Positions 2,681-35,465 of a stretch of DNA of 64,000 bases are shown here, in pieces; the stretch's first letter is position 1, and the number at the start of each line of letters is the position of its first letter. The position numbers were made by a program, and so were the translations under genes. The stretch comes from Brachycybe producta (lineage: Eukaryota > Arthropoda > Diplopoda > Playtdesmida > Andrognathidae). Under the pieces are notes generated by a model that searched no databases, had not been told where the DNA came from, and saw only the letters and a program-made list of their open reading frames with translations. The stretch is taken from positions 3,478,426-3,542,425 of the forward strand of contig JAUPFP010000015.1 of NCBI GenBank assembly GCA_036925085.1. Direction: 5' to 3'.

Positions 2681-2682
2681 GG

Positions 2683-12849: not shown

Positions 12850-13009
12850 TTAATATAATGTAAAAATTTTCGATTAAATTTTAACTTTTGTTTATTTAGC
12901 TTTTTTCTAAAAAAAAAAAATAAGTTTAATGTTACAGTTTTGTCAGGTGTTCCGTGATGCAGTGAGCAAAATGAAAAGTTTTGGAACAACAGAATACAAC
13001 AAAAGATAC

Positions 13010-13120
13010 AGATGATTAGCGATCACCCAAACCAATGCGATAGTGGGAATGTCGCGGGAAGGGACCTTCCTATTACCGCTCCGGCTCCCATGTCCTGCAT
13101 TGGTTTGGGTAACTAATCAT
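13010..13120. repeat. Short element with inverted ends
   Basis: ATGATTAG...ACCCAAACCAATGC on the left is inverted on the right as GCATTGGTTTGGGT...CTAATCAT. The loop of about 55 bases is GC-rich and imperfectly self-complementary. Confidence 0.6.
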
Positions 13121-16372: not shown

Positions 16373-16682
16373 CAGGGGCATAGCTTGGGGCCCGCAAACC
16401 ATGCAACTGCAGGTGGTACAGGAGGGTTTGGGCACAATGTTGAGAGAGTTTTAATTAGTAAGGCAACCAGAAAAAATTCACTTTTATTAAAAGAAAACTT
16501 TGTTAGTTTTTGTAACGCTATACTAGAGGCTGGTTTCACCTTTCAATTATAACCTCTAACCTGGTTCTGTAACTGAAAAATGCAAATTTTTTGTTTAGTT
16601 CAGAATTTTTTTTAATAAATTTGGGGGGCGCGCGCACTGAAGACTTTTGCACCTCGGTGCCGAAATCCTATCTATTCCACTG
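16373..16682. mobile_element. Possible hAT-like fragment
   Basis: The left end CAGGGGCATAGC and the right end, read inverted as CAGTGGAATAGA, share a CAGNGG(C/A)ATAG pattern. The flanks share TGTTAA immediately outside each end (6 of 8 bases). The ends differ too much for certainty. No coding is seen. Confidence 0.4.
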
Positions 16683-17664
16683 ATTGTTAATATGGTATAT
16701 ATGTAGTCGTACATATTATATCCATATTTAAGAATGAAATATGAATTTTTTTTAACTGTTTGACATTTCTATTTTAAAAGGAAAGTGGACCGACATTATT
16801 CTTTTTTGTTTACAAGAGGCGAAGAAAATCATAACAATTGTAACTCTGGTTGTATTTTTCAACGAAATATTACTACGCTATAGATGGTGATGTATTCTCA
16901 TGAAATGTTTTTTTTTTTAAAAGTTGACGAGTAAAAAATATCAGAAAAAGGGCCATTGATTAGGGTTGGTGCTTGAAGAAAAAATCCCCTGAAATGTGAC
17001 CATCTGCAACTGGAAACTATATGTTTAAGACAATATCCTGGTTTAAAGTCTGTTTCAGACCGGACGATTAAATTGCTGGACACATGTATTGAGGGACTTA
17101 ACATCTTTGTCGGACATGGCGACTTGTATCAGGAAACTTATGGCCAGTGACGTTTGTGTCGAAATGACAGTATCCATTTTTTAGTTTTGCAATGAGTTTG
17201 CCGACAGGTGGTGATACGTATTTACGAATCCATTTGTATTTGCTTCTAGGTGCAGACTGAGGGATGTTTTCTTTTTGAAATGGGCAACACTCGTTGATGT
17301 CTAGCTGCCAGTACCACATTGAGTTTGTAAATATGGTAATTTGTCAAGAATTATCTCTTTTGTTACTTCGATTCCTAACATAGTTACGTTGCTTATTGTG
17401 ACGAGGCTGGCCCTTTAGCACCACCATTTTGTGATGGTGCTGGCTCTGAACCAGCCCCTGGTTTAACTGTGCGCAACATTCCAATAGTCCAGGTGACTTA
17501 CACCAAAAAGACCTTTCTGTTTTAGCTGGGGCTGAATGTGGCCCTCCTCACTCCTCGAGTAGGTACACAGTATCGACTCGGGAATCTTTGGTATAGATGC
17601 ATAACAGGCTTGACGATCCTAGTCCTGTTTAGCCTGGGTCTGAAGGTGCCAATCAGAGGGACTT
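16683..17664. other. Gene-free stretch
   Basis: AT-rich with moderate-complexity segments around 17100-17330 and 17400-17560. The open frames on the minus strand at 16898-17104 and 17098-17319 show no recognisable motif. Confidence 0.4.
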
Positions 17665-18799
17665 AAGCCTAGTATACACCGGGATTCTTTGTTGCGATAC
17701 ATTGTTGCGGGGCTGAATCTCGTCTGTTGCGATTCTGTCCCGCAACAATGTTGAAATGTTTCGGGGTTGAATCGTGTCAACTCAGATTCATGTTTTTTGA
17801 GTCCCATCGAAATGGGAAACATTTCAACATTGTTGCGGGACACAGAGCCGGCGCTACCGAGAGTGCAACTTGTGCATTTGCACAGGGCGGCAAATTTATA
17901 GGGCAGCAGGTTGTTAGATTTTTTTTTGCAAACAAATTTTTTTAATTGAGTAAAAGATTAGGTTTAACAGCAAACAATGTGAAATATTCAAAAGGTAATG
18001 CAAGGGTGTGAAACTACGTACTTTTGTCTTTATTTTTCAAAAAATCACGAAAATTGGGGCGTGTAATTTGCGAGAAAATGGCAAAAAAAACTTACCCGTG
18101 CAGCGATTTTTCCATAGAGTTCTATGTTAAGGTTTCGTCTGCTAACTTCTTAGGGGCCGTCTTTTAGCCTACTGCCACTAGAGGCGCTTATTGGACATAT
18201 GGCTCATTGTAATGAAATGTTTTATGGGGTGGCATTATAACAATTTGCACAGGGCGGCAAAATGGCTTGCACCGGCCCTGGTGGGACATTTCATGGTGTG
18301 AACGTCTTTTGAAACATGAACAAAGACTCAAAGGGCTCAGTTTGCTTTTAATTATAAAAGACGTCGTTAATAATTAAAAGCTATTGAGCCCTTTGAGTCT
18401 TTTTCAGTGGTCCACGTCGTTTTTTAAGTCTATAGAACTAGACTTAAAAAAATATGTGCACCATTGAAAATATTCTTAAACTAATTGAAAACCTTCTGTA
18501 TGAATTGTGTTTTAGGGAGTTATGGTCTTCTGACTACAAAGGAAAATAAAAGAAATGAAATTTAGAAATTCTGCCCCATCTTTCAATTTCAGGGTGTAGG
18601 CCCCGTGTAGGCCCATATTGCAAGGGCCACTTCCGCTGGTAATATTTACATGCTGAAAGCAAGAAAGAGGAAAAAACACTGAGTGTAGGTGTAGACATTG
18701 AACAATGTTGCGGGTCTGAATCGCGTCAGTTGCGAACATTGAATCGGAGCAGTCCCGCAACAATGTATCGCAACAAAGCATCCGGTGTATACTAGGCTT
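17665..18799. mobile_element. Non-autonomous DNA transposon with AAGCCTAG ends, itself interrupted
   Basis: The left end AAGCCTAGTATACACCGG is found inverted at the right end (CCGGTGTATACTAGGCTT). Inside each end lie matching TTGTTGCGATACATTGTTGC-type words, so the inverted arms extend for tens of bases. A separate hAT-type element (17843-18280) is inserted within it. The target duplication is not clear. No transposase coding is visible, so it depended on an element elsewhere. Confidence 0.7.
17843..18280. mobile_element. Nested hAT element with 8-bp target duplication
   Basis: Ends are CAGAGCCGGCGC (left) and GCACCGGCCCTG (right), inverted copies with two differences. The flanking 8-mers are GCGGGACA (17835-17842) and GTGGGACA (18281-18288), matching at seven of eight bases. 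CAG-starting ends and an 8-bp duplication are the hallmark of hAT transposons. The interior words GCACAGGGCGGCAAA recur inverted near both ends. 438 bp, no coding. Confidence 0.8.
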
Positions 18800-18923
18800 T
18801 AGAAGGTTTCTGAGGGCCTCTGTTGGTGCTGAAGTCGTACGCTAGTCTTTTTCTTGGTTATTTTCACTGTTGGAAAATTAACTCGCACAACAATCTATGA
18901 GGTATAAAAGTTCTCTTTTTATA

Positions 18924-19478
18924 TAACGCACCCCAAAAATGGGTTATATCTCGAGTTAAATTTGATGGATTCGCCTGAAATTTTCACCATAAACAGATCA
19001 TCTTTTATTACAAACTGTCTGTTAAACAAAATTTTTTTCTTAAAAAGGTAAAAATTAAAAAAATTAAAAACTGAAAAATGGCCGTTTCATAATTATAGAC
19101 GCACTAATGAACTTTTCACTTTAATTAATTATTGTGACAAAATAACATTTGGAACACAACAGTAACATTAAAATTTATGACTGTCCTGATGTTTTAGAAC
19201 TTAAAACATTGTTTTCGAACTTAAAACATTGTTTTCTACATATTGTAAACTACATTTATAAACATATATACAGAAATTCTGTCCAGAAGCAGCTAAAATG
19301 GAACTTTTCAGCTTTGATATTGCAGTATAATCATGGCAATCTGCTTAATAATCACGTAGGATGATGTCCCAAACGTTTTCTACAAGATTTAAGTCTGGGG
19401 ACACGCCGGCCATTTGAGAGTGGTGATATTTTGGTTCCGTAACCATTCCTTCATTAGGTTATTGGAGGAAACTGTGTT
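18924..19478 (-). mobile_element. Tc1/mariner-type transposon fragment
   Basis: The sequence matches the terminal part of the Tc1-like element at 40877-42994 (words CTCGAGTT, TTCTTAAAAAGGTAAAAATT, GACGCACTAATGAACTTTTC). On the minus strand, near 19370-19470, a broken reading frame contains KEWLRNQNITTL, then a tryptophan and proline-rich stretch. This resembles the region before the last acidic residue of Tc1-type DD34E/D transposases. Stops interrupt the frame, so it is a dead fragment. Confidence 0.7.
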
Positions 19479-21339
19479 TTCAAATTCCAATGTGATTTTT
19501 TAAAAATATTTTGAATCGGTAACTAACTTCTATTCAGACTCATTTTAGTTTAACATTATGACTTCAGACTAATTTTTGTTTTTTTGTAATTTTGTAAGAT
19601 TTTCTGGAATTAGTTGTAAATGTAATGTATTTGAAACCAGGGAAACTTGGGTTTCGATCAACTTTTAGTGGAATTGTCTGTTAATCAGAGTTTTGAGGTG
19701 CTGTTTTCATTTTGCAATTAGATTGAATAATTTTTGAAAACCCTATTTTCCAAAGTTTCTTTTTAGTAAGAATTTGATAGTTTCTACATATGATGTTGGT
19801 GACGTTCTCTTTTGAGTGGTAACATTATTTCTTGGTTTGTATGTATGTTGAGTGATGTCATAGTATGTTTTTTCCCCAACAACTGTATCATAATAAATAG
19901 TGCATATGATTGTACAAGAGCTGGAAATCGTACTGTTTGACATTAATATTTTTGCGTTTTCTTTTTTATTTTTAAGTTTTCAATAGCTGTTAAGCCCGAG
20001 ATGGAAATATTGGTTGTGTGCGTGTGTTGTGCTGGTTTGATTCATCTTACGTTGTAACCACATCTTATTTGGTTTGTATTATGAAATAACTCGAAAAGTA
20101 TGTTAAGAGGAAGTTGAAATTGTTGAACCTTTGTCGTTTTTATTTTCTAGTTTGGTGTTGGCTGAAGAAAAAAGCCGAAAATAATGTTGAGATGGCCATT
20201 TTGTTTTTCGTGAATGATTGATTGTCATGGATTGGGAGTGTTGGCGGTTTTGTTAGTTGGATGATCGTGGCTTGCTCTATTTCCTCAGCTTCAAGAGTAT
20301 GGAGAAGTTTTAACTTGATGTTTGATGACTATTTGTAGGTTTTGTTTTTGAAGTTGTTAGCTGTAATGGTTTTTTTGTTAAATCATTTGTTTCATTTTTA
20401 ATTTTACTGGCAATAATTTAATATTTAAATCAAATAATTTTAACTTGATTGATTAATGCAGTTAGTGTGGGAGTATTTATCCTTTTCCTATGTCTGCTTT
20501 ATTTTAATTAGGGTAAGTGTAGGGGGTTATGTTTGGGAATGATTGTGTTGTCATTTGTGATTGCTTTGTCGTACTCGTAAGTTGCATTGTGCCAAGGTGG
20601 TTTGAGGGTGTTGTTGCTTGGATGGTTGTGGTTACTTTTAGGGCATTAATTTTTGGGATATAGCTAGTATGTTTCTTGGATATTGCTGGGATAGTGTTTT
20701 GGGTAGGCCTACTGGCCTTACTTAGGTGATTTATTTTTGAAGTTATTGCTTGGAGAGTATTGTTTTTGAGTGGAAATTACTTGTAATGTATTGGGTTTAC
20801 TTGGATGGTTTGACTTTTTGGATGTTGCTGGAATGGGTTTACTGGTGTTTGTCTGCAACATTACTAACAAGACAAACAGATTTGTGAAGTTTTTGTTAAG
20901 GGCATTTGGGCATGTGGTGAGTGAGGAGAAACACTGCTTTACTTATATTTAACTTATTCACTCATGTGAATTAGTTTAAAATTAAATTGTGGAGAGATGT
21001 TTAGAATGTACACATTAAGCATGATTACTTTATGAATCCTAAAAATGGGTTTTGATTTGCTGAATGTTAAGTTACGAACAATGCTCAAATGGCATCTAAA
21101 GATACAGCCTTTGTGGTTCTTAAACTATATACTGGTGTGTATATATTAGGTACCAAAAATGGAAGTGGTATTCTTGTAAAATTTATAGAAATACACATTG
21201 TAAAATGTGATGGATGCAGGTATTTTGGTGAACTGTTTTTGCTGATTGTGATAATATAAATGGTATAATATAAATGGTAAATAAGCATGAAGGTTATTTG
21301 TGAACAGTTAATGGTTTTAAACTATATTGGTATATGCTG
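19479..21339. other. Strongly T/G-biased gene-free stretch
   Basis: The plus strand is very poor in C: 20341-20400 has T 36, A 11, G 10 and C 3. Open frames here are artefacts of that bias. No exon or bounded repeat was recognised. Confidence 0.5.
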
Positions 21340-21655
21340 AAATATGATTGTTATGCATTACTCTGAATTTTAGCTGTGATCCCATTATTTCACTGAGTTG
21401 TTGTTTGCTCATTGGGATAATTGTGGATTATTTAGATCAGGTAGGGTATGATTTGTGATGCATAATTTTGAATTTTAGCAGTGATCCTATTATTTCACTG
21501 AGTTGTTGTTTGCTCATTGGGATAATTCTGGATTACTTAGATCAGGTAGGGTATGATTGTGCTGCATTACTTTCAATTTTAGCTGTGATCTCATTATTTC
21601 ACTGAGTTGTTGTTTGCTCATTGGGATAATTCAAGATTACTTAGATCAGGTAGGA
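21340..21655. repeat. Three tandem copies of a repeat of about 105 bp
   Basis: The marker TTAGC(T/A)GTGATC occurs at about 21370, 21475 and 21579, each followed by TTATTTCACTGAGTTGTTG, a GCTCATTGGGATAATT word and TTAGATCAGGTAGG. The spacing is 104-105 bases with a few differences per copy. Non-coding. Confidence 0.9.
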
Positions 21656-22899
21656 AGAATTTACAGTTATTAAATATAAAAATTATACTTTGATAATGAA
21701 TTGAAGGTGGTCTGATGTAATTACTCAAATGGGTAAAAGTATAGCTAAAGTCAATTTTTACATGAATCTTACGATTGTCTAGGTTTAGCACCAGTTTTGG
21801 ATTTGATTCTTTAAGATCATGAACTGAAGGGATTAGCTTAAATTGACATGTTTATGTGAAATATGCCTTTTCTTGTACTTGATTAATACATTAACTGAAT
21901 TTCATTTTAAAAGAAATTTGTGATATTGGGTGAGCTTTTTAGTTTGGTGGTCTTTCTCAGATGTTTCTTTGATTGGAGAGATGTGTAATTTTTTATTGGG
22001 TGATCATTTTGGTGGGTTTATTGGAAGGGTGGTTCATTTTGGTGGTTTTCATTTGATGGTATAATTTTGTTTTTTTTATTTGATTGGGTTCTTTATTTTA
22101 ATTGTTGTGGTTATATTTTTTGTGTTTATATGCTGTATGTTTGTATATGCTGCAAAATTAGAATCATTTACAAGTGTTGTTTGTTAATGTGCTTTTGTTT
22201 GTTAATGTGCTTTTGTTTATGTGCTTTTGTTTGTTATTGTACTTCCTACTTAGTATTTGTAAAATAATCATGAACACCACATCATTTACATATACATGTG
22301 AATTAATTGATTTCAGAAAGATTACTTGTGGAAGTGGTTAGTTAATTTACTTTTCTTACAACATTTCTTACTTTGCTGTTAATTGATTGGGTTTTGAATG
22401 TTTTGTCACTTGCATGATTTAAAATATAAATTAATGCCAGTTTAATGAGAAATTGTTGCAAATGATTTAAAATGTTGTAAATGATTTAAATTGGTGTCAA
22501 TTGAATTTAAATTTGTCTGAACTAATGTAATAAGAATAAATTGCCTGATAATTTGTCATTTAAAGTGACTTGTAATTGATCTTATTGTAATTTATTACAT
22601 GCTTTGTTATATTTAAAGTTATTACTGAATATGCCTGTTTGATTGTTTTTTACTATTCACTATTTGTTTTTCAAAAAGTTGATATTTTTTGTATTGATTT
22701 TTTCCATGCATGTAATTACCAATTTTAGTAGTTATGTTTTCATTTTGTTAAAAATGTTTAATAAGATATACAGCATCATGGTGGTGGTGGCGGTATTTGT
22801 TGCAATAATATGGCAACATTGTATACCGTGCTGTGTTTAAGGTTCTCTAGAAATTTTAGGCCTAGCCTTCATATAAGGAGGCTTTTTTTCTATTATGAT
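21656..22899. other. T-rich gene-free stretch
   Basis: Contains a short tandem tract near 22180-22250 built on TGTGCTTTTGTTTGTTAA. Open frames are long strings of Phe, Val, Leu and Cys caused by T/G richness. I see no gene. Confidence 0.5.
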
Positions 22900-23071
22900 T
22901 ATTAGTCTTTTTCATTGTTTTATTATTGTTAGTCTTTTATTGTTTTATTATTGTTAGTTTTTTTAATGTTTTATTATTTAGTGTTTTTTATTGTTTTATT
23001 ATTGTGATGCCATATTTTATCAATTGCAGATACTTATGATGTGTAAATTTGTTATTTGGTTTGCAAACAAA

Positions 23072-23104
<33 letters not shown>
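23072..23104. repeat. (AGT)n microsatellite
   Basis: About eleven uninterrupted AGT triplets on the plus strand. Confidence 0.95.
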
Positions 23105-23599
23105 GGCAAAAGATTCTAGGTATTTGACCTGGACAGAAATTTAAGGGCCAAAGGAGGACATATCCAGGGGGGAGGGGGGAAGACAGAAGATGTATGGTAA
23201 TGCTATGTTTGTGTTAATTTTAGTTATGTTTTTATTAGTATTGTTAGCCTTTTTATTGTTAATCTTGTTTTTATTTTTATTGTTAGCATCTTTTTATTAT
23301 TGTCACTTTTGTGTGTTATTGTTAGTGTTTATTTATTGATAGTCTTTTGATTATTGTTAGTGTTTTTATTGTTAGTCTTTCTTTTTCTTGTTAATCTTTG
23401 TTATTGTTAGTCTTTTTCTTTTTATCTTTTTTGGATTGTTAGTCTTTTTATTCTTGTTAGTGTTGCTTTTTATTGTTAGTCTGTGTTATTGTTGGTGTTT
23501 TTACTACTTAGTCTTTATTATTGTTAGTGTTTAGGTTTTTATTAGTCTTTATTATTGTTAGTCTTCTTTGTATTATTGTTTGTCTTATTTATTTTATTA

Positions 23600-23751
23600 C
23601 TAGTGGGGTAACCTGTCATAAATGATGTGGGTAACTCGTCATACATGGCAGGACATTCTAGTTTGGCAAATGGTTTTAAGGCAAATGTGTGGGCTTACAT
23701 GTTTTGTCCTTGTTTGTACAGCATTATAGACAGACAGACTTAGGGTTAGTA

Positions 23752-23824
<73 letters not shown>
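23600..23824 (+). mobile_element. Interspersed element ending in a TA tract, copy 1
   Basis: It starts CTAGTGGGGTAACCTGTCAT, contains TTGTCCTTGTTTGTACAGC and CAGACAGACAGAC, then runs into a GT tract and a TA tract of about 50 bases. A second copy lies at 46968-47306 in the same orientation. A fixed 3' sequence followed by a variable simple-repeat tail suggests a retroposon (SINE or 3' end of a LINE), but I cannot name the family. Confidence 0.65.
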
Positions 23825-23828
<4 letters not shown>

Positions 23829-24020
23829 ATTGTTAGTCTTGTTCTTTGTATTAGTCGCCTTCATATTATCGGTAGTTATTTTATTACTGTTAGTCTATGT
23901 CAGTCTTCTTATTAATGTTAGTTGTTTATTACTATTAGACTTCATCTTAATGTTAGTCTATATTATTATTGTCTTCTTGTTAGTCTTTATGTTGCTGTTA
24001 GTCTTGTTAGTCAAATTGTG

Positions 24021-24733
24021 AAAAGGAAAAATTCAAAACTTGAGGGTTTGAGTGGAACACATGTTGTCTATGTTTCACAATAGATGGTGTGTTGCATTTC
24101 TGTTCTGAATATGTGTGCGTCACATGCAAATGGAAAAAGAAATCAGAATTTCTTTTGTAGCAGTGGTTTTCTTGTGTTTTTTGTTGTATGTTTGTGTGTG
24201 TGCGTGCATGACTTTAGGCTAGGCACCTATTGAGATGCATGTGAGGCGACAGCACCGCACGCACTTTTGGTGCATAAATTGGTAACAATGACGACACAGC
24301 ACAGCATGCTTTTGTAACGAACGAAAATTAATAGGACAGCACAGCATGCTCTTTTGTAATCAACGGAAATTAGTAGGATGGCACGAATTGGTAACACGAT
24401 GCTATGCAATGCTGCTTGCATCTGTTTACAGACACTTGGCACTGGTTGATGCAGTTTCTCGTGCCCCACATGTGACGTGTTTTATTCTACAGGTAATTTT
24501 AGGTGATTTCCACAAAAATGAGGTAACTGAGGTAATGCAAATCACGCTATGTGTGGGGCATGTTTGTGTTATGGCACTTGTCAGGTTGTTTTGCATGCAT
24601 CATACACATCCGAATATGCACCTAGTCTTATTGTCTTGGTATAATCATTGTTAGGGGGTCATAATACCATGCTGCTTGTATAAAGTTATACTTAAGTGTT
24701 GTACATGTAAATTATTTGATGGTGAGTCGAACA
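24021..24733. other. Stretch upstream of the tRNA-like array
   Basis: Two imperfect direct repeats of roughly 50 bases (word CAGCACAGCATGC, then TTTTGTAA) occur at about 24296-24380. The open frames over this region on both strands have no recognisable domain. Confidence 0.4.
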
Positions 24734-26380
24734 TGTGCCTTGGTGGTCTAGTGGTTAAAGCCACAGGTGGTGGCCACCACAGGGTCTGGGTTCATATCCT
24801 GGTGGTGGTGGCATACAAGAAAATGAAGTATTATAAATGAATTGTGAATAAGCTTTTGTATGTTACAAAAACAATAAATAAAGCTAAGTTATTTATTGTA
24901 TATAAAGTTGCATGTATTTGTTGTACATATAGGAGTTTCGAACATATTAAAAATGTGTGCCTAGGTGGCCCATTGGTTAAAGCTATGAGTGGTGAGAAAG
25001 CCCACAGGTGGTGGTGGTGGCACCCAAAGGGTCTGGGTTCAAATCCCGGTAGGTGCATGCAAGAAAATAAAAATGAAATGTGATGATGCTTTTGTACGTT
25101 ACAAAGATGAATCAAAGAAACAAATCAAACATTAATTCTTGTATATAAAATTACATGTAAGTCTTGTACAAATAGAAGTTTCAAACACTTTACAGATGTG
25201 TGTGCCTCACTGGCACAGTGGTTAAAGCCATGTGTGGTGCAAAAGCCCACCGGTGGTGACACCCAAAGGGTCTGGGTTCAAGTCCCGGTAGGTGCATGCA
25301 AGAAAATAAAAATGAAATGTGAAGAAGCTTTTGTACGTTACAAAGACGAATCAAAGAAACAAATCAAAGATTAATTATTGTATATAAAATTACATGTAAG
25401 TCTTGTACAAATAGAAGTTTCAAACACTTTACAGATGTGTGTGCCTCACTGGCACAGTGGTTAAAGCCATGTGTGGTGCAAAAGCCCACCGGTGGTGACA
25501 CCCAAAGGGTCTGGGTTCAAGTCCCGGTAGGTGCATGCAAGAAATTAAAAATGAAATGTGAAGAAGCTTTTGTACGTTACAAAGACGAATCAAAGAAAAA
25601 GTCAAAGACTAGCTATTATTGTATATAAAATTACGTGCAAGTCTTGTACAAATAGAAGTTTCAAACACTTTGCAGATGTGTGTGCCTCACTGGTGCAGTG
25701 GTTAAAGCCATGTGTGGTGAGTTACCCCACAGGTGGTGGTGGTGGCACCCAAAGGGTCTGGGTTCAAATCCCAGTAGGTGCATGCAAGAAAATGAAATGT
25801 GAAGAAGCTTTTGTACGTATCAAAGACTAGTTGTTATTGTATATAAAATTACGTGTAAGTTTGTACAAATAGAAGTTTCGATCACATTACAGATGTGTGC
25901 CTGACTGGCACAGTGGTTAAAGCCATGTGTGGTGAGTAAGCCCACAGGTGGTGGTGGTGGCACCCAAAGGGTCTGGGTTCAAATCCCAGTAGGTGCATGC
26001 AAGAAAATAAAAATGAAATGTGAAGAAGCTTTTGTACGTATCAAAGACTAGTTATTGTATATAAAATTACGTGTAAGTTTGTACAAATAGAAGTTTCGAT
26101 CCCATTACAGATGTGTGCCTCACTGGCACAGTGGTTAAAGCCATGTGTGGTGTGAAAGCCCACCGGTGGTGGCATCCAAAGGGTCTGGGATCAAATCCCA
26201 TGTGATGAAGCTTTTGTACATTATCAAAGATTAACTTATTGTATATAAAATAACGTGTAAGTCTTGTACAAATAGAAGTTTCAAACACAGTAATAATGTA
26301 ACCGCCTCGGTGGTCTAGTGGTTATGCTACCTGAAAAGTAACCACACAGTACTGGGTTCAAGCCCAGGTACAAGACAAGA
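24734..26380 (+). repeat. Array of eight tRNA-like (tRNA-derived SINE-like) units
   Basis: Eight units begin near 24734, 24956, 25201, 25440, 25681, 25896, 26114 and 26298 (spacing 184-245). Each has a polymerase III A-box-like TGGCACAGTGGTTAAAGC and a B-box GGTTCAAATCC, placed in a T-arm-like stem CTGGG/CCCAG. In the unit at 24956 a 7-bp acceptor-like pairing (GTGCCTA with TAGGTGC) is possible. Between units lies a conserved spacer with GAAGCTTTTGTACGTTAC, GTATATAAAATTAC and CTTGTACAAATAGAAG. The anticodon-like loops lack the universal T33 and the region before the T arm is long, so these are unlikely to be working tRNAs. The last unit (26298-26433) is more divergent and ends in a long A run like a SINE tail. 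Confidence 0.8.
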
Positions 26381-26404
26381 GCGCGAAATGAAATGAAATA
26401 AAAG

Positions 26405-26438
<34 letters not shown>

Positions 26439-26449
26439 ATAAGAGATGA

Positions 26450-26519
26450 GGGGGGGGATGGGCACCTGGGGGGCGGCGGTGGGTGGGTGGGAGGGGGCCG
26501 CCGCCTGCGGCGGCGGCCC
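26450..26519. other. G-rich block with G-quadruplex potential and an 11-bp hairpin
   Basis: Five or more runs of three or more G (26450-26457, GGGGGG near 26468-26473, GGGTGGGTGGGAGGGGG at 26481-26497) satisfy the usual quadruplex pattern on the plus strand. It is followed by a perfect 11-bp stem with a three-base loop at 26495-26519 (GCCGCCGCC / GGCGGCGGC core). The block sits directly after the A run that ends the tRNA-like array. Confidence 0.85.
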
Positions 26520-26539
26520 GTCCCTTAACTACATCACAT

Positions 26540-28760
26540 TTTCATTTTGCACCACAAAAACAAAATACCACAAATAAAAACATAAAAACAAACACACTAA
26601 AAAAAAACATCCACCACCTACAACAAAACAAAAGAAACATACCACAACCAAAAAAAACAACACCAAACACACAAACATAAAAAAAAAAATTAACACAAAA
26701 AAAAATTAACACCACACAAAAAAATAAAAACCACCTACAACGAACCACCATAATAAACAACAATAAAATAATAACCACCGCCTACAGCACCACCCCAATA
26801 AAATAAAAAAAAAATCAAACAATTAACACCACCAACGACGGCGCCCCAATACACCAAAAACAATCAAACATTTAGCGCCACCAACGGCAGCGCCCCAATA
26901 CACCAAAAACAATCAACCATTTAGCGCCGCCTACGGCGGCGCCCCACTACAACAAAAAACAATCAAACACTTAGCGCCGCCTACGGCGGCGCCCCAATAT
27001 AACAAAAAACAATCAAACACTTAGCGCCGCCTACGGCGGCGCCCCAATATAACAAAAAACAATAAAACAAATAGCGCCGCCTACGGCGGCACCCCAATAC
27101 ACCAAAAACAATCAAACAATTAGCGCCGCCTACGACGGCACCCCACTACAACAAAAAACAATCAAACAGTTAGCGCCGCCTACGGCGGCGCCCCAATACA
27201 TCAAAAAACAATCAAACAATTAGCGCCGCCTACGGCGGCGCCCCAATCCAACAAAAAACAATCAAACAATTAGCGCCGCCTACAGCAGCCCCCCAACACA
27301 ACAAAAAACAATCAAACAGTTAAAATAATCCGACAATATCCTAAAAAAAATCACACAATCACCACAAACAAAACACCACCTGCAACAGCGCCAAAAAATA
27401 CTACAACAAACTAACAACAAAATAAGCGCCGCCTACAGCAGCGCCTAAAAATAATCAAAAACAATCACCACAAACGCCGCCTACACCAGCGCCCAAAAAC
27501 ACAACAAACGTACCGCCACCTACAACAGCACCCAATAATACGACACAATAATAACAAACCTAACTACACCTACAATCCCGCCCAAAAACAATACAAGACA
27601 ACACACTTCACCAACACCAATTACTAAAAGACATTATATTTCTAAAAACAAATACAAATAAAAATTCAAAAAAAAAATATAAAAATAAATTCAAAAATTT
27701 AAACAAAAAAATAAAAAATAAATTAAAAAAAAAAATAACAAAACATTAATTAAAAAAAAATAAAAAAAAATTTAAAAAAAAATTACAAAATTCAAATAAA
27801 AAAAAACAAAAAAAAATCTAAAAAAAAAAAATTTAAAAAATTCAAATAAAAAAAAAATAAAAAAATAAACATAAAAAAAATAAATAAAAAAACAAACAAA
27901 ATAAATTTAAAAAAAAATTTAAAAAAAAAATAAAAACAAAAAATTAAAAAAAAAAAAATAAATTTAAAAAAAAAATTAAAAAAAAAAATAAAAAAATAAA
28001 TTTAAAAAAAATAAATTAAAAAAAACAAATAAAAAAAAAACAAATTTAAAAAAAATAAAAAATACATTTAAAAAAAAAATTACAAAAAAAAAATTCAAAA
28101 AAAAAATTACAAAAAAAATGAAAAAAAAATACATCAAAATAAATTTAAAAAAAAAAATAAAAAAAAAATTAAAAAAATAAAATAAAATAAATTAAAAAAT
28201 CACAACAATAAACATAAACAAACAAACAAACCTTTCTATAATCAAACACAAGACACAAAAAAATCTGTATATATACACACAAACATTTCCATATTTACAC
28301 AAACAAACAAAGCTTCCCATGTTTACACAACATTACACACAAACAAACCTTTCTCTATACACACAGCACTACACACAAACAAAGCTTTCTATATATACAA
28401 AATGTTACACACAGACAGACAAACAAAACTTTCTCTACCCACACACCAAAACACACAGACACACACACATACCTCACTAAACAAAGCTTTGTTTCTACAA
28501 GAAACAAGGAGAAAACTAAGAACAAACAATAACAAACAAAGAAACAAACAAATAAAAACAAACAAACAAATAAAAACAAACAAACAAACAAAAACAAAAA
28601 AAAAGAAACAACAAAATAAACAAAGACAGGAACAAACAAAAAAAAACCAAAGAAACAAAGAAAAAACAGACACAAAGAAACACAAGAAACAAACAAACAA
28701 GAAAAACACCAGAAACAAAAGAAAAAAACACAAACAAAGAAACAAACAAATATAACTTTT
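26540..28760. other. Block made almost only of A and C on the plus strand
   Basis: Outside the hairpin minisatellite, G and T are nearly absent; 28561-28620, for example, has A 48, C 9, T 2 and G 1. The first part is rich in ACCACAAAA words, 27660-28200 is A runs broken by TTTAAA, and 28200-28750 is built on CAAA. The long open frames across it, which read as Phe/Leu/Cys/Val strings on the minus strand and Lys/Asn/Gln/Thr on the plus strand, are composition artefacts. Confidence 0.85.
26821..27310. repeat. Minisatellite of ten 50-bp units, each with a GC hairpin
   Basis: The core GCGCCGCCTACGGCGGCGC (8-bp perfect stem, TAC loop) recurs at about 26823, 26873, 26923, 26973, 27023, 27073, 27122, 27172, 27222 and 27272. 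Between cores lies a G-free linker of the form CCCAATA, ACAAAAAACAATCAAACA and ATTA. Degenerate cores (GCCGCCTACAGCAGC and similar) continue to about 27560. The hairpin has the same design as the one at 26495-26519. Confidence 0.95.
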
Positions 28761-31430
28761 ATCTCTTTGTTCCATGGCTGGACCTGTGCCAGCCAGTCAA
28801 GTTACAATTGTATACCACTCCACACCTCCCAAACTCATGCTCCTTGACCTGCCAGATCAACTTGATAGCCTCAATCCACAGCCCTACATCATACCTCCAC
28901 TTCATGTTGAAGAAAGACTCCCTCACATCTCAATCCTGTTTGATTAATTATTTCCATATATGCCAACAAAAAGAAAACCCTTTTCATATTTCAGACACTT
29001 GTCTTTATCAGCCACCTTTCCACCCAAAGAAAACAAGTAATAAAACTTCAGAAGACCAACTGGCAACATCCCCCACACATGTGCAAGACGTGTCACACAA
29101 AGCAAGAAACAAACAAAAGACAGAAAGAACAAACAAAGAAACAAAAAAAAAAACAAGAGAAACAAACAAACATCATCTCCCTCACCAATACACTGATGTG
29201 CAACCCTCTCAATAACATCATGAAACATAAAGCCCAGCAGTGATCCTGACTCATTTATTGTCCTTTTCCAATGACACACAACTTTAGCATACCTCTGTAC
29301 TATCATACAGGGGTTTAACCTACTTTGGCATACCTCATGTTACCAATATCGTTGTTTGTGTGACACCTCACCAGGCCTGGGCCCTTTCCCCCAGTCCCAC
29401 CCCTTAACATAAACACAACATCCTCATAACAGAACATCCTGATAAGCACCAACACCAAGTCTATGCAGTTCCATTTCTCTATTATATTTTATTTTAATTA
29501 GGGATAAATCATCTTTAATATGTTTCAGTGACCACTGGTCAATCATTACAATTAGTCACTTTTGAATTTACTTTTATCCAACTTATACTTATAACCAACT
29601 ACCAGATTCTGACAAAATCCTCCCAAAATCCTCTTCTTGCATATATATAAGTCCATATTTTTCGTTATAATCTAAGTACAATCAAGACACCAAATTTATA
29701 ATTCAGTTTGTTCAAGAAACGCTTATGTAAAATAAACTATTATTATGGGCAAAAAGTTACTGAAATCTCATTTTTATATTCATTAAATCAAACAAACAAC
29801 TTTAAAATATTCTCATCTAGAACCAGCAATCCAGGTACAAAACACCAACACTAAATGAAGCCAAAGAGAACAACACAATCTACCAGCTTTCAACCAGGTC
29901 CAACCCTGAGGAGTAGCACACCAAAAAAATACTTGAAACTATAAAATTCATAAAAGAGAAACATGTGACAAAACTAAAGAGATTAATTTATTCCCTTCCT
30001 CCTGAACCAGAAAACAAGTCACCTAGCCAACCACTCTTGGGCAAAATCTATTTCCTCTAAAGCTCATTTGTTACAAGTAAATATTAAATTATTAATAATC
30101 AAAAACCATGTGGCACTCACAGTCCACACAAGATGGTCCACATACCACCAAAATTACAACAATCCTTTTTTTTAATACTGAACACTCCTATTCGACATCA
30201 ATAAACTTAAAACCAATTTTACCAACACTTGTTTTTAACACTTTTTTAAGTTTTCAAAAGCCAAAAACATTCAACTTTTCAAATCTCTAATATATTTCAA
30301 GATTGAACAATTCAAATATCCAATCACTAATTTTTATAATAAATCGAAGTTAACTCAGGAAATAATCAGCCAATCTTAACATTTAAATAATAGAAATGTT
30401 CACAATGAATGTGTCTTGAATTTACATGTAATGTTAAAACCACACATCTCTACTCCTTAAGATAATATAAAGCAAATTAAACATTTTTTTACCAAATTTC
30501 TCCAAAAACGTCATAATATCTAAAAATGTGGACGTTCTATGTTAATTATGTATGACATCAAATATGTACAGTGTACTATCATACATATTTAGAGACAATC
30601 TACACATTAATTGGACCTGTGGTTCCGAAGATATTAAGAAACAACAAAAGTCAGCCATTTTCCAAAACAGCATCATATCTTAAATCAAGTCTTTTACATA
30701 GTTCTTTATATCTGCCAAGTTTGGTACTTTTATCACAAATTGAGCAATCAACTCACCAAGCTACTGAACTAATCTATTCAGACACCTTTATACTAAAATG
30801 CATGTACTGCAAATACAAAAGATATTACACCATATATTATAATGTGGCAATTGCATTACCTTTTTATATAAACCTCCCTCCCCTCTCTCTCTCTTAAAAG
30901 ATGACAAATTAGATAAATGTGCCATAACCTCAATTTTTGTTCATAGCTAAAAATATCAAAAGATTTCTATACTTTTTGTCAAAATCACTCTTTCAATTTC
31001 AAACATACAAATTAGCATACACATTTTAACATGATAAAATACGTAAAATACGCAAATATATCTTATAATCGATATTGCTTAGCTTTCTAATAAATCCTTT
31101 TTTTTTCCGTCTTCTTCACCTTTTTTTCCTTGACAACTTATGTGACTTCTTCGAATCTGGTCAAAGTCAATTAACGGTTTGACCAATTACAGTCACGTTT
31201 GTTATCACGAGAATTGGTTAAATGCCACACCAACCCACCGCACACATTGACAGACACTCTACTTGAAATGTACTAAAGTGTGACTTGCTAATTTTAAGGC
31301 TAGTTTCTTGGAACCCGTCAATTTCAATTCACATTCTCAAAGTTGAAAATTTAATTACAGTAAATCAAGAACATGAAATGTGCATTTGCCACTGAAATTT
31401 ACTTTTTTTTCTTCTATACAATAGAACGAC

Positions 31431-31461
<31 letters not shown>

Positions 31462-31601
31462 CATGCTTTTTAATCTTGAGTTAGCTTTTATTCCTTTTCA
31501 AAGGAACCAACATCAACCAAAGTGTATGAAAAAAGGTAACATAAGTTGAGAAAGTTCATTCTCCTCAATTACTGATGCTCTTTGAGTCTTTTCTATAATA
31601 A
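28761..31601. other. A/C-biased stretch with two unexplained open segments
   Basis: No gene is firm. Two minus-strand open segments, about 28790-28928 and 29170-29306, have balanced residue use unlike their low-complexity surroundings and are described in the findings. An AG microsatellite lies at about 31439-31461. The bias is clear: 29821-29880 has A 31, C 17, G 7 and T 5. Confidence 0.4.
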
Positions 31602-31913
31602 TTAGGATTCGCATTTTTATGGAATATTAAAAGCAAATTTTCTCAAATTGTCGCCCAAGAGAAAATTTTGAAGTAAACATCACCATAATTAAAGCAACTA
31701 CAATAATACTTATTAATGAAAAAGCATGCTTACATGCTAGAGATCTACTTACTATCACTGGTCAACTACAGCTCCGGCTTCTAACCAAGTGATTTTCATT
31801 CACAAAACCATAATCGTTGGTTCATCTAAATAGGATTGTTATTTCACAATTGGTCCTTGAGCCACACGTTGAGAAATATTACTATAATATTGCATAAAAA
31901 TCCGAGCCCTAAT
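31602..31913. repeat. Foldback element, TTAGGGCTCGGATTTTTAT family, copy 1
   Basis: The left arm TTAGGATTCGCATTTTTAT and right arm ATAAAAATCCGAGCCCTAA are inverted copies. A second pair of inner words (GCCCAAGAG / CTTGAGCC) extends the arms to about 60-70 bases. The same family occurs at 53538-53838. Confidence 0.75.
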
Positions 31914-31996
31914 AAATATAACAAAAATAACAGATCATTATTTAAACTCTAACAATTCTATGTCTCAGAAACAACATTAAGGAGAAATTGAAAGTG

Positions 31997-32160
31997 TTAG
32001 ACACTAGAACCGTTTCTCAATTACATAATATGTTCTTTACACGTTGATATTTGACAAAATGAACTTATTGCAGACAAAATAGCCATAAATTATTTAATTT
32101 AAGAGAGATCGTCGTCAAACTGTTTTTCAATTTTTCTCGTAAAACAGACAATACCTTAAC
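31997..32160. repeat. Partial copy of the CTAGAAGGG foldback family
   Basis: GTTAGACACTAGAACCGTTTC followed by TCAATTAC and a GTTGATATTTGACAAAAT segment matches the left half of the family. The right arm is missing; the RTE-like retrotransposon's 3' end lies just beyond. Confidence 0.5.
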
Positions 32161-32237: not shown

Positions 32238-33818
32238 TCATTTCCTGTACCTTATCCCGCGAGCAGCAGGGTCGGCCTTGCTGGTTCTAACTCTCCACTC
32301 GTTCCGATTTTGCACCAAGCCCCCAGTGACCCCACATGCCACCATATCCCGTTTTACTACCACATCCCAGGTTTGCTTGGGTCTTCCTCTACCCCGTTTT
32401 ATTCCCAGGTCTAAGTTCATTGCCTGTCTCAGCAGCCCATCTTCTCCACTCCTGAGGACATGCCCAAACCACCGCAGCCTATTTTCCTGCATCTTTTCTA
32501 CTATATTTGTTACCCCTACACTACCCCTAATAAAATCATTTCTAATCCTATCCCTTCTGGTCACCCCACTCATAAACCTTAGCATTCTCATCTCAGCTAC
32601 CTGCATTCTATCCTCATGCACCTTCTTGATTGCCCAACATTCTGACCCATACAACATAGCTGGTCTGACTACTGTTCTATAAAACTTTCCCTTCAATTTT
32701 ATAGGTAACTTCCTGTCACATAAAACCCCACTAGCCTCCCTCCACCTATACCAACCTGCTTTTATCCGGTTTGTGATGTCTAAGTCTAAGCTCCCATCAT
32801 CTTGCAGCACAGATCCTAAATATTTGAAGTCATGCACCTGCTGCATTAAACTGTCCCCAAGTCTAATCCCCTCATTCAACTGTTCTTTCCCATCCCACTG
32901 AAATTTCATGTACTCCGTTTTTGCCCTACTTATTTTCAACCCCTTTGATTCCAAGGCATTCCTAGTCTCCTCTAACCTTATCTCGAGTTCCAATTTGGAT
33001 TCCCCAACTAAGACTATGTCATCTGCAAACAGCATACACCAGGGGACCTCCTGCCTCACCCCTGCCAGTAACTCATCCAGGACCAAAATAAATAGATATG
33101 GACTAAGTGCTGAGCCCTGGTGCACACCAATCCTAACACGAAAACTGTCAGAGAACCCCCAGGCAGTCTTAACGCTTGTCCGTGCATCCCTATACATGTC
33201 CCTCACCATATCTATATAACTCTCACCCACCCCCTTCTTCTGTAAGACCTCCCACAATAACGTCCGTGGTACTCTGTCATAGGCTTTCTCTAGATCTATA
33301 AATACCATGTGTAACTCTTTCTTGGCAGCCCGAAACTTCTCAATAACTTGCCTTAAGGCAAAAATAGGGTGCATTGTGGATTTTCCTGGCATAAACCCAA
33401 ACTGACTTCCCCCAATTGCAGTTTTACCCCAAAGTCGAGTTTCAATTACTCTCTCCCAAAGCTTCATCGTATGACTCATCAATTTAATACCTCTATAGTT
33501 CCCACATTCCTGAACATCACCCTTCCCTTTGAAAATAGGCACTAACCAGCTGTCCCGCCATGCACCTGGCATTCTATCCCCCATAGCCAATCTATTGAAT
33601 AACTTTGTGAGCCAGGAAATAGCAACATTCCCCAAGACCTTCCACACCTCTACTGGTATCCCATCTGGCCCTAAAGCCTTCCCTAGCTTCATTTTTCGCA
33701 ATGCCTGAACAATTTCCTCAGCCCTAACCTGCTCCAATTCTTCTCTATGATTATTTCTTCCAGTGAAAGGCTCCTGCTCTACCCCCTCATTCATAAGCTT
33801 ACTAAAATATTCCCCCAC
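32238..33818 (-). CDS. RTE-type polyprotein, reverse transcriptase part
   Basis: This frame encodes the reverse transcriptase that copies the element's RNA into the nicked target. Motifs appear in order: LGKALGPDGIP, LVPIFKGKGD, NYRGIKLMSHTMKL, QFGFMPGKST, FIDLEKAYDRVPR, GVHQGSALSPYLF and the catalytic FADD (MLFADDIVLVGES), so the active-site aspartates are intact. The C-terminal third has the usual KFYRTVVRPAMLYG, EMRMLRFMSGVTRRDR and RRGRPKQTW segments. The listed start at 33818 is only where this frame opens; the true protein starts upstream at 35248 and reaches this frame through the frameshift. The stop is at 32238. The large plus-strand frames opposite (33747-34607 and others) are shadows. 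Confidence 0.9.
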   Translation of the reverse strand: MGEYFSKLMNEGVEQEPFTGRNNHREELEQVRAEEIVQALRKMKLGKALGPDGIPVEVWKVLGNVAISWLTKLFNRLAMGDRMPGAWRDSWLVPIFKGKGDVQECGNYRGIKLMSHTMKLWERVIETRLWGKTAIGGSQFGFMPGKSTMHPIFALRQVIEKFRAAKKELHMVFIDLEKAYDRVPRTLLWEVLQKKGVGESYIDMVRDMYRDARTSVKTAWGFSDSFRVRIGVHQGSALSPYLFILVLDELLAGVRQEVPWCMLFADDIVLVGESKLELEIRLEETRNALESKGLKISRAKTEYMKFQWDGKEQLNEGIRLGDSLMQQVHDFKYLGSVLQDDGSLDLDITNRIKAGWYRWREASGVLCDRKLPIKLKGKFYRTVVRPAMLYGSECWAIKKVHEDRMQVAEMRMLRFMSGVTRRDRIRNDFIRGSVGVTNIVEKMQENRLRWFGHVLRSGEDGLLRQAMNLDLGIKRGRGRPKQTWDVVVKRDMVACGVTGGLVQNRNEWRVRTSKADPAARGIRYRK

Positions 33819-35248
33819 CAGTTCCGTACTGGCTCCCTACCCCACAATACTTTGCCCCCATTATCCTTAACACTCACCACCTTTTCAATATCTCTGCCTT
33901 TATTCTCCCGAGCCCTAGCTATTCTATATACTGCCATTTCTCCTGCTCTGGTACCTAACTTGGCATACATGTCCGCATATTTCTTATGCTTTGCTAAGGC
34001 TACCTGCTGTTTGGCCTCTATCTTGGCACGCTTGTATTCTATCTGGGCCTCCCTGCTTCCATCGTGCCACCAAGTCTTGAAAGCATCTTTCTTCCTTTTA
34101 ACTGCCCTCTGTACCTCCTCATCCCACCACCAAGTTTCTCTGTCTAATCGAGACCCCCCTACTCGTACTGTCCCTAGTACCTCGTTTCCACAATCACGGA
34201 TCTGTTGTGCTACCCTTGTCCACAGCTCTCCTGCAGTGCCATCTAAATCCCATGCTATCTTACCTGCCATTTTCTTAAACTCTTCCGCCTTGTCTGGTAA
34301 TGCCCACCACCTAATTGCTGTCTCTCCTCTATGTCTGACCACCTGTTTTGCCCCCCTAAGTTTTAGGTCTAACACTACTAGCCTATGTTGTCCCGCTAAG
34401 TTTTCACTCGGTATCACTTTACAATCCTTGCACTCGTTTCTATCCTCACTCCGAATCATGAAGAGATCAATCTGGGATTCTCCTGCCCTGCTCTTAAAAG
34501 TAATCAAATGTTCCTCTCTCTTCTGGAATAGTGTGTTTGCTAAAATTAACTTATGTGCCACTCCTGCCTCCAGGATACTCTCCCCTGCTTTATTTCGCTC
34601 TCCATAGCCCCACCCACCATGTACCTCTTCATACCCTTCCCTACCTCTACCTACATGTCCGTTAAAGTCCCCACCAATTATGACCCGTTCCTTCCTACTC
34701 AGGCCCAACATTAGGTCATCAAACTGTTCCCAGAATGCTAGCTTCCTGGCTGTATCTAATCCAACCTGGAGGCCATATGCACTAACTACATTTATAACAA
34801 TGCCACCCCAAACTACCTTTACTACTAACAGCCTACTATTTATCTGCCTAACCTCAACCACACTATGTCTGAGTTCCTGATCTAGGACAATTCCTACTAC
34901 ATTTCTACCCTCCTCACTACTTGCATAATTTAATTTATACCCATCCCCAATGTCCCTGGATTTATCCCCTTTCCATCTTGTCTCCTGCAGACATGCAACA
35001 TTTACCCTCCTAGCCTTTGGAACACTAGATAACTCCCTAGTCTTCCCTGTCAAACTCCCTATATTCCAGGTGCCAAACCTAAGTTTAGTACCTCCACTTC
35101 TACCACTACTTCCAAGACCTCCTTGTTGTTGATGCTGGACTCGCTTCTTTAGCCCCACCCATCCACTGTGGGGTAGCCCTTGCCAATTTGTCACAGCCAC
35201 CGGGCATTGCAGCTGCGCATCGCTTATGGCGGGGGACGCCCTAGCCAT
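33791..35248 (-). CDS. RTE-type polyprotein, N-terminal part with endonuclease domain
   Basis: The 485-codon frame carries an APE-like endonuclease that nicks target DNA to prime reverse transcription. It starts near residue 60 with GTWNIGSLTGKT, then LQETRW, SAYGLQVG, GGDFNGHVG and AGQHRLVVLDL, in the order seen in active endonucleases of this class. After the endonuclease comes a lysine- and arginine-rich linker (about residues 380-450). The frame then leaves its natural course at a run of five C (plus strand 33812-33816) and stops 13 codons after the switch begins. The frame entered by the other reading continues straight into the reverse transcriptase frame, so both frames were one protein. 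The first ATG at 35248 is the best start I can see; the first 60 residues have no known motif. Confidence 0.85.
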   Translation of the reverse strand: MARASPAISDAQLQCPVAVTNWQGLPHSGWVGLKKRVQHQQQGGLGSSGRSGGTKLRFGTWNIGSLTGKTRELSSVPKARRVNVACLQETRWKGDKSRDIGDGYKLNYASSEEGRNVVGIVLDQELRHSVVEVRQINSRLLVVKVVWGGIVINVVSAYGLQVGLDTARKLAFWEQFDDLMLGLSRKERVIIGGDFNGHVGRGREGYEEVHGGWGYGERNKAGESILEAGVAHKLILANTLFQKREEHLITFKSRAGESQIDLFMIRSEDRNECKDCKVIPSENLAGQHRLVVLDLKLRGAKQVVRHRGETAIRWWALPDKAEEFKKMAGKIAWDLDGTAGELWTRVAQQIRDCGNEVLGTVRVGGSRLDRETWWWDEEVQRAVKRKKDAFKTWWHDGSREAQIEYKRAKIEAKQQVALAKHKKYADMYAKLGTRAGEMAVYRIARARENKGRDIEKVVSVKDNGGKVLWGREPVRNWWGNILVSL

Positions 35249-35465
35249 ATTCGGAAAACTATTTCAAACCAACATCATATGTTTTGGCAAATCTTTACAA
35301 CCGGCTGCCAACCTGACGTCGACCCTCCACTTTTGCACCCGGGCTGGGGGGGACCGGCAATGGCGTGGTTTGGTTTTAGTCTCCCCTGAGTATTTTATGC
35401 CCTCAGTACCCTCCATATCTGCCATATCTCCCCTATCCGCCACCTGGGGAGGCAACCGATAGGGG

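What the first reader, a model, noticed from the sequence alone, without database searches (positions are those of the whole stretch)
19479..32000. Strand composition flips near 26.4 kb
The plus strand is T>A and G>C to the left and A>T and C>G to the right. Counts by eye: 20341-20400 has T36 A11 G10 C3; 23401-23460 has T40 A7 G8 C5; 28561-28620 has A48 C9 T2 G1; 29821-29880 has A31 C17 G7 T5. Milder bias of the same sign seems to continue to both ends: long G runs lie only at 2065, 3796, 5089 and 26450, and long C runs only at 58321 and 59101. In animals, transcribed non-template strands and leading replication strands tend to gain G and T, so this pattern suggests convergent transcription or fork convergence here. 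The right half does carry minus-strand genes; no plus-strand gene is known on the left.
Basis: partly seen in the sequence, partly recalled or inferred. Interest (0 to 1): 0.8.

Follow-up and report, generated by a model that had tools for sequence, protein, structure and literature searches.

The report
Possible fixed replication meeting point
In this unnamed animal genome the two DNA strands swap their base bias abruptly at one spot, for hundreds of kilobases either way and whatever direction the known genes run, which suggests a place where DNA copying machines reproducibly meet or stall.

Summary
The flip is real. GC skew peaks at window base 26,497. In 264 kb of continuous sequence, GC skew is positive in 31 of 31 4-kb bins to the left and negative in 33 of 35 to the right; spaced samples keep the AT sign to -427 and +284 kb. 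It survives masking of tandem and dispersed repeats. Known gene direction does not set it: a glutamate-receptor gene in the left arm and copine and PH/RhoGEF genes in the right arm are all minus strand, yet skews are opposite. Copies of the same repeats diverged according to arm and orientation, so the bias is mutational and acquired in place. Within ~10 kb it becomes extreme: in a palindromic array right of the flip, G>A outnumbers C>T 47 to 1. The flip lies in a compact element (plus-strand tRNA-like array, poly-A, G-quadruplex-capable tract, GC palindromes) found at one other place, on C29. Best reading: germline forks converge here, perhaps at a polar barrier with local single-stranded DNA or breakage. 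The sign is opposite to that of known origins. Breakage with resection and convergent noncoding transcription are not excluded. No replication, RNA or genome-wide skew data were available.

The parts
1..19475 (+). Left arm inside the window: G>C and T>A on the plus strand; the domain continues at least 100 kb further left
19476..24740 (+). Left hyper-skewed T/G-rich block (GC skew 0.24-0.47 per kb from 20 kb on); low copy, starts at the end of a high-copy inverted-repeat element at 19,475
   Evidence: 1-kb skews; in the listed matches the high-copy family covers query 1-475 only; the rest of 19,000-21,340 matches only C15 and C29; C29 copy 96% identical to 21.7 kb, then 91% and 85% in pieces to 23.7 kb
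24744..26372 (+). Tandem array of tRNA-like units (about 215-240 bp) with Pol III-type A- and B-box motifs, all on the plus strand
   Evidence: TRF rows 24835-26200; the 7 A/B-box pairs (5 distinct B boxes) found in 264 kb, both strands, all lie here, against a mean of 0.1 in 20 shuffles; box consensus recalled. ARAGORN finds no tRNA; Rfam tRNA only 18.5 bits, under the 29-bit cut-off
26286..26404 (+). Last tRNA-like unit and the start of its A-rich tail: 119 bases identical between C15 and C29, while the adjoining array is about 81-86% and the block at 19-21.7 kb 96% alike; its 23-base core has exact matches at only these two places in 295 Mb
26396..26433 (+). Poly-A tract
26450..26497 (+). 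G tract with G-quadruplex motifs on the plus strand, present also on C29; the GC-skew flip is at its end
26495..26519 (.). GC palindrome (GGGCCGCCGCC TGC GGCGGCGGCCC)
   Evidence: read directly; 17-base core found exactly only at C15 and C29
26755..27540 (.). About 50-bp tandem array with a GC-rich palindrome in each unit; G to A decay on the plus strand, almost no C to T
27644..28218 (+). A-rich low-complexity tract, shared with C29 up to about 28,190
28253..31000 (-). Right hyper-skewed A/C-rich block; no match to the fetched C29 stretch beyond about 28.2 kb
   Evidence: (top 60 rows)
32238..35263 (-). LINE (endonuclease and reverse transcriptase) on the minus strand; inflates the right-side skew at 32-35 kb
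44118..45089 (-). Two successive copine exons, minus strand (profile 150-180 at 44,949-45,089, then 174-217 at 44,118-44,426)
   Evidence: E 0.0058 and 1.6e-7; PDB search of the second gave nothing at 0.001
63251..63918 (-). Two successive PH-domain exons (second begins the C-terminal PH), with a FYVE match below its cut-off; part of a PH/RhoGEF gene, FGD-like by reading
   Evidence: PH E 1.2e-6 and 0.0038; FYVE E 0.022; RhoGEF E 0.0019 in the right-minus set
36000..64000 (-). Right arm: C>G and A>T on the plus strand; the domain continues at least 100 kb further right

Best explanation
The flip marks a place where germline replication forks reproducibly converge: a fixed terminus, perhaps imposed by a barrier. 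Left of it the plus strand is mostly copied by rightward forks, right of it by leftward forks, so opposite strands serve as lagging-strand template, and over evolution each became richer in T and G. The compact element at 24.7-27.5 kb is the likely barrier. Its plus-strand Pol III-like units and plus-strand G-quadruplex tract both face a leftward fork coming from the right, so a one-way block would suffice to make forks meet here. Prolonged stalling, with single-stranded DNA or occasional breakage and 5'-3' resection, would explain the much stronger C>T-type bias in the last ~10 kb on each side. Shown: the skew domain, its independence from the direction of the genes found, its acquisition after repeat insertion, the extreme G>A decay in the array, and the anatomy and two-copy status of the element. 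Inferred: that replication is the cause, that forks converge rather than diverge, and that the element is the barrier.
For: One main sign change in 264 kb, and AT skew of constant sign in all 5 spaced left samples (-177 to -427 kb) and the first 3 of 5 right samples (+184 to +284 kb). Opposite skews in two arms whose identified genes share one strand. Repeat copies of one family differ by T/G on the predicted strand outside the core (z 3.9; pairs at least 80% alike z 2.6, p 0.005; left arm alone z 2.9; right arm alone z 3.1). In the palindromic array G>A 47 against C>T 1 over C15 and C29, and 15 against 0 using only units with 3 mismatches or fewer. All 7 A/B-box pairs in 264 kb, and a G-quadruplex tract, sit at the flip on the plus strand. 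On C29 the cumulative GC skew of the shared element also peaks at the palindrome boundary (local maximum 14,942). Fork-polarity skew is described for human N-domains (PMC3320577, passages), and abrupt skew inversions are a standard mark of origins and termini in bacteria (PMC4729899, passages). tRNA genes, Pol III elements and G-quadruplexes are described as fork impediments; budding-yeast tRNA genes arrest forks that run against transcription (PMC5368702, passages).
Against: No fork-direction or timing data. Leading-strand polarity was not calibrated in this organism. The C29 copy, the natural test of whether the element alone imposes polarity, is unclear: beyond the shared part a purine-rich tract has G>C (0.60 and 0.55 per kb), so the overall GC maximum of the 30 kb lies at 22,648, not at the element, and the unshared flanks, 6 kb a side, are weak (L GC +0.032, AT -0.059; R GC -0.021, AT +0.060; predicted GC sign in 3 of 5 and 4 of 5 samples, AT in 4 of 5 and 4 of 5). 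Several far samples on C15 deviate (L032 GC -0.011; L040 GC +0.205, AT -0.040; L041 GC +0.046). AT skew is nil in right-near unique sequence. In the tRNA-like array A>G exceeds T>C, but C>T is hardly above G>A per site (9/35 against 12/53). The same review says fission-yeast tRNA genes can be non-polar barriers and that G-quadruplexes may form mainly on the lagging strand (PMC5368702, passages), which weakens the one-way argument. The core asymmetry seems too strong for ordinary leading/lagging bias, so a second process is assumed. How common such flips are in this genome is unknown.
Confidence: 0.48

Rival explanations
1. Recurrent germline double-strand break site. Ends at ~26.5 kb are resected 5' to 3', leaving the plus strand single-stranded on the left and the minus strand on the right; cytosines (and adenines) there deaminate. 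This would be the main cause of the core bias, with a weaker replication background.
For: Geometry: in yeast, break-centred single-switch clusters have mutated C on the left and mutated G on the right of the top strand, with resection of dozens of kb (PMC6786661, passages). The strong skew is confined to roughly 10 kb a side. Palindrome array, G tract and poly-A are break-prone kinds of sequence (recalled). The right-hand arrays differ strongly between C15 and C29, while the block at 19-21.7 kb is 96% alike. G>C 13 against C>G 2 as well as G>A in the array.
Against: Does not explain skew of constant sign over 100-300 kb. The left side has an abrupt step near the 19,475 repeat boundary. The left array does not show a clear C>T excess. 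No break data.
Confidence: 0.22
2. Convergent noncoding transcription. A long plus-strand RNA on the left and a minus-strand RNA on the right run into the tRNA-like array; their non-template strands are exposed in R-loops and gain T and G.
For: Sign fits. No RNA data to exclude it. A T/G-rich block followed by tRNA-like units faintly recalls MALAT1/mascRNA (Rfam mascRNA 26.4 bits, below the 42.5 cut-off).
Against: The left arm holds a minus-strand GluR gene whose intron has the opposite-sign skew to minus-strand genes on the right. No plus-strand Pfam match better than E 0.006 among 46 of 55 candidate plus-strand ORFs of the left arm, LTR elements left out. It would need noncoding transcripts of 100-300 kb on both sides.
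Confidence: 0.17
3. A strong fixed replication origin in a lineage whose leading strand gains C and A, so that the skew sign is reversed.
For: Strongest skew next to the flip and decay outward; G-quadruplex and poly-A resemble features reported for animal origins (recalled).
Against: Known origin jumps go the other way: negative to positive GC skew at Candida albicans centromere-origins (PMC2924309, passages) and upward jumps in human (PMC4729899, PMC3320577, passages).
Confidence: 0.08
4. Historical scar: two subtelomeric ends, each T/G-rich towards its end, were fused head to head, or the contig is misjoined here.
For: Sign fits two chromosome ends facing each other; the C29 copy lies within ~90 kb of a contig end; subtelomeres often share duplicated blocks (recalled).
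Against: No telomere-like array at the flip in the TRF list. The same junction is assembled on C29 up to 28.19 kb. The bias is also seen in repeat copies at least 80% alike and in both arrays.
Confidence: 0.05

Closest known systems
Human skew N-domains / replication fork polarity gradients
   Same: Megabase-scale strand skew that follows average fork direction and is superimposed on genes
   Different: Human sharp jumps are upward, at origins, with linear decline and dispersed termination between (PMC3320577, PMC4729899, passages); here the sharp jump is downward
Candida albicans centromere-origins with inverted GC skew
   Same: One locus where GC and AT skew both invert
   Different: There negative to positive across an origin, in a yeast (PMC2924309, passages); here positive to negative over hundreds of kb in an animal; no centromere evidence was sought or found
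Programmed fork barriers and termini (rDNA RFB, fission yeast RTS1, bacterial Ter)
   Same: Would act as a polar block that fixes where forks meet
   Different: No binding protein known; the element here is tRNA-like units, G tract and palindromes; no fork data
Strand-coordinated single-switch mutation clusters at resected breaks
   Same: C-type changes on the left and G-type changes on the right of one point
   Different: Those are single mutational events in one cell; here an evolutionary accumulation plus a domain hundreds of kb wide, and the left-hand C>T half is not clear in the tRNA-like array

Membership tests
Fixed replication terminus / fork barrier | Skew sign changes from leading-like to lagging-like at one point | tested here: met
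   assumes the usual leading-strand polarity
Fixed replication terminus / fork barrier | Independent of gene orientation | tested here: met
   Minus-strand genes in both arms, opposite skews; limited to the three genes found
Fixed replication terminus / fork barrier | Forks measured to converge or pause there | not testable with these tools
   No OK-seq, 2D gel or timing data
Fixed replication terminus / fork barrier | A second copy of the element imposes the same polarity on other DNA | tested here: inconclusive
   C29 flank samples have the predicted mean signs but are weak, 6 kb a side, and a G>C purine tract lies directly right of the shared part
Replication origin (upward skew jump) | GC skew goes from negative to positive along the plus strand | tested here: not met
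   Positive to negative
Transcription-associated skew of convergent genes | Plus-strand genes left and minus-strand genes right | tested here: not met
   The left-arm gene identified is minus strand; noncoding RNA untested
tRNA genes | Scores as tRNA | tested here: not met
   ARAGORN none; Rfam 18.5 against 29 bits; only A/B-box motifs are present
Break-and-resection mutation cluster | C changes on the left and G changes on the right of one point | tested here: inconclusive
   Right: G>A 47 against C>T 1. Left array: C>T 9/35 against G>A 12/53 sites, A>G 18/78 against T>C 4/58
Chromosome-end fusion | Telomere repeats at the junction | tested here: not met
   No such array in the TRF list; (TTAGGG)4 has no match genome-wide, true telomere motif unknown

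The most novel reading that the evidence does not exclude
An animal chromosome carries a sequence-encoded, polar fork barrier (tRNA-like Pol III array, G-quadruplex and GC palindromes) that acts as a Ter-like fixed terminus in the germline. It organises strand bias over ~0.7 Mb, exposes single-stranded DNA within ~10 kb so strongly that cytosine decay becomes almost one-stranded, and has been copied to a second place.
Probability: 0.27. Interest if true: 0.85.

Novelty: new variant of a known kind. Interest (0 to 1): 0.58.

Why it matters
Replication termination in human cells is described as dispersed between origins (PMC4729899, passages), and the sharp skew jumps described there are upward. 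A sharp downward jump with a candidate barrier would give a defined place to test whether animals have programmed termini, and how stalled forks or breaks shape mutation. None of the searches run here (titles, abstract starts and a few passages seen) listed such a site in an animal chromosome, but these were narrow keyword searches of open-access papers and most hits were seen only as listings.

Tried and rejected
Simple repeats as the sole cause: rejected for GC skew, which remains after TRF masking and in unique sequence. LINE composition: explains only 32-35 kb. Convergent coding genes: rejected for the genes found. Canonical tRNAs and curated RNA families at their cut-offs: none in the window or in the ten flanking and C29 loci scanned (ARAGORN was run on the window only). 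A telomere-fusion scar: no support. LINE homologues to name the organism: uninformative, relatives in a catfish and in plants. Long G runs as a genome-wide polarity marker: unusable, since only the first places are listed and long runs are counted many times.

Caveats on my own tests. In the repeat-pair test, low-identity pairs could partly reflect local composition; the class at least 80% alike is the safer one (154 pairs, 104 loci), and in pairs at least 75% alike the T/A component is near zero (+9). Array units are not independent events; the distinct contig-position changes are G>A 13 against C>T 1. For Pfam I gave 46 of 55 left-plus, 47 of 48 left-minus, 74 of 76 right-minus and 53 of 58 right-plus candidate ORFs (lists; alignments); dropped were ORFs in the tandem arrays, the G tract and the start of the right core. 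ORFs inside the two LTR elements and the LINE were left out beforehand. Exons under 40 residues would be missed. Other left-minus matches were weak (two members to EGF_FBN_1st, best E 0.00058, a low-complexity repeat under its cut-off). GluR exon 1 has only weak PDB support (best E 0.013; all 8 hits are glutamate receptors) and none at 0.001; exon 2 and the channel exons on the same strand are strong. That these exons form one gene is inferred.

Full report
Observation. Cumulative GC skew turns at 26,497 and cumulative T-A at 24,809, raw and with tandem repeats masked; the stretch between is the tRNA-like array. The window is bases 3,478,426-3,542,425 of contig C15 (4.8 Mb) in a 295-Mb genome of 442 contigs. 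I fetched 100 kb on each side. GC skew is positive in 31 of 31 4-kb bins up to 24,000 and negative in 33 of 35 beyond. AT skew is negative in 25 of 31 left bins, the exceptions in or next to two LTR elements, and positive in 32 of 35 right bins. Spaced 3-kb samples keep the AT sign at -177, -227, -277, -327 and -427 kb (all negative) and at +184, +234 and +284 kb (all positive). GC skew is positive in 4 of the 5 left samples (about zero at -177 kb) and negative in those 3 right ones. At +334 kb both skews reverse, and at +434 kb they are mixed. So the domain is of the order of 0.7 Mb, with a possible upward jump near +0.3 Mb. Block permutations never reach the observed single change point for GC (0 of 5000), with or without the core.

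Not the direction of the genes found. Right arm: two successive copine exons and two successive PH exons are on the minus strand, in the order expected of minus-strand genes, with RhoGEF (E 0.0019) and a sub-threshold FYVE match in the same set. No right-plus match was better than E 0.028 among 53 of 58 ORFs. Left arm: an amino-terminal glutamate-receptor exon at L009:2818-3120 on the minus strand (Pfam ANF_receptor E 1.3e-11; PDB glutamate receptor 2, E 3.3e-11). A preceding exon lies at L016:6436-6723 on the minus strand (weak, glutamate receptor 4, E 0.013). Three ion-channel matches lie on the minus strand at C15:3,307,857-3,313,453. If these are one gene, it is about 147 kb long and inside the left arm. 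No plus-strand match better than E 0.006 was found there among 46 of 55 candidate ORFs. In unique sequence, GluR intron 1 has GC skew +0.083 +/- 0.013 and the copine-to-RhoGEF stretch -0.101 +/- 0.018. Same transcribed strand, opposite skew: the sign follows position, not these genes.

Mutational and acquired in place. Copies of one repeat family within the 264 kb were compared after scoring, from arm and orientation, which strand should gain T and G. Copies on the predicted strand carry T where partners carry C, G where they carry A, G for C, and T for A: 2524 net differences outside the core, z 3.9 against random labels, 0 of 2000. The result holds in the left arm alone (z 2.9), the right arm alone (z 3.1), across arms (z 3.1), and in pairs at least 80% alike (z 2.6, p 0.005). 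In the palindromic array right of the flip, whose unit has 8 G and 9 C, 31 units on C15 and C29 show G>A 47, C>T 1, G>C 13, C>G 2. With only units of at most 3 mismatches it is G>A 15, C>T 0. On the left, the tRNA-like array shows A>G 18 over 78 A sites against T>C 4 over 58, but C>T 9 over 35 against G>A 12 over 53: only partly as predicted.

Anatomy at the flip. From left to right: a T/G-rich block from 19,476; tRNA-like units, all plus strand; a last unit whose 119 bases are identical on C29; poly-A; a G tract with G-quadruplex motifs; a GC palindrome; about 50-bp palindrome units; an A-rich tract; an A/C-rich block. In 264 kb every A/B-box pair found (7, with 5 distinct B boxes) is in this array, against 0.1 expected. 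They are not canonical tRNAs. The palindrome core and the tRNA-like 23-mer have exact matches only here and at C29:3.175-3.176 Mb, reverse strand. The C29 copy matches 17.66-28.19 kb: 96% identity at 18.9-21.7 kb, 91% to 22.9 kb, 85% to 23.7 kb and 81% over 24.6-28.2 kb, with about 4.5 kb extra near 23-24 kb. On C29 the GC skew of the shared part peaks at the same palindrome boundary, but a purine-rich, G>C tract follows directly to its right, so the 30-kb profile as a whole peaks elsewhere. The unshared flanks have the predicted mean signs but are weak.

Mechanism. Far component: a skew of about 0.08 for 100 kb or more each way, blind to the strand of the genes found, is best explained by average fork direction, as in human N-domains (PMC3320577, passages). 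With the usual leading-strand excess of G and T, forks converge at 26.5 kb. Origins show the reverse sign (PMC2924309, PMC4729899, passages). Near component: GC skews of 0.3-0.6 and nearly one-stranded cytosine decay suggest longer single-stranded exposure. Both the plus-strand Pol III-like units and the plus-strand G tract would meet a leftward fork head-on or on its leading template (geometry inferred). tRNA genes in budding yeast arrest forks moving against transcription, though fission-yeast ones can be non-polar, and G-quadruplexes can stall forks, perhaps mainly on the lagging strand (PMC5368702, passages). A polar block of leftward forks at 26.5 kb, awaiting a rightward fork, gives both components. 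Breakage and resection at the same site give the same strand geometry (PMC6786661, passages) and may be the immediate source of the core bias. The barrier function and the replication cause are inference.

Limits. If flips of this kind turn out to be common and to follow transcripts, the interest falls sharply.

Noticed in passing
L014-L015 and L018 (C15 left flank), window coordinates about -57,500 to -48,000 and -8,700 to -500: Two very similar LTR retroelement copies (by their open frames) with long open frames, both on the plus strand in the left arm.
   Followed up: partly
window 32238-35263: LINE reverse transcriptase whose listed relatives include a catfish and many plants (about 48-58% identity in the rows seen), a patchy distribution.
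   Followed up: partly
window 19000-19475: High-copy element with paired inverted arms about 466 bp long and about 470 bp apart at many places in the genome (foldback or MITE-like; label recalled).
   Followed up: partly
L030 about 830-3340 (C29): About 2.5 kb of degenerate GATA/GGATGA-like purine-rich sequence right of the duplicated element, poor in T on one strand; unlike the A/C-rich block at the same place on C15.
   Followed up: partly
whole genome: (TTAGGG)4 has no match in the 295-Mb assembly, while its backwards reading has 40 matches, overlaps counted; the telomere repeat of this animal is unclear.
   Followed up: no
L029 (C29:3161001-3168500): GC-rich (about 55%) LTR-element-like stretch with RNase H/reverse-transcriptase-like open frames beside the C29 copy (reading by eye).
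   Followed up: no
C15 3,789-3,842 kb: Both skews reverse between the samples at +284 and +334 kb from the flip, a candidate upward jump (origin) on the right.
   Followed up: no
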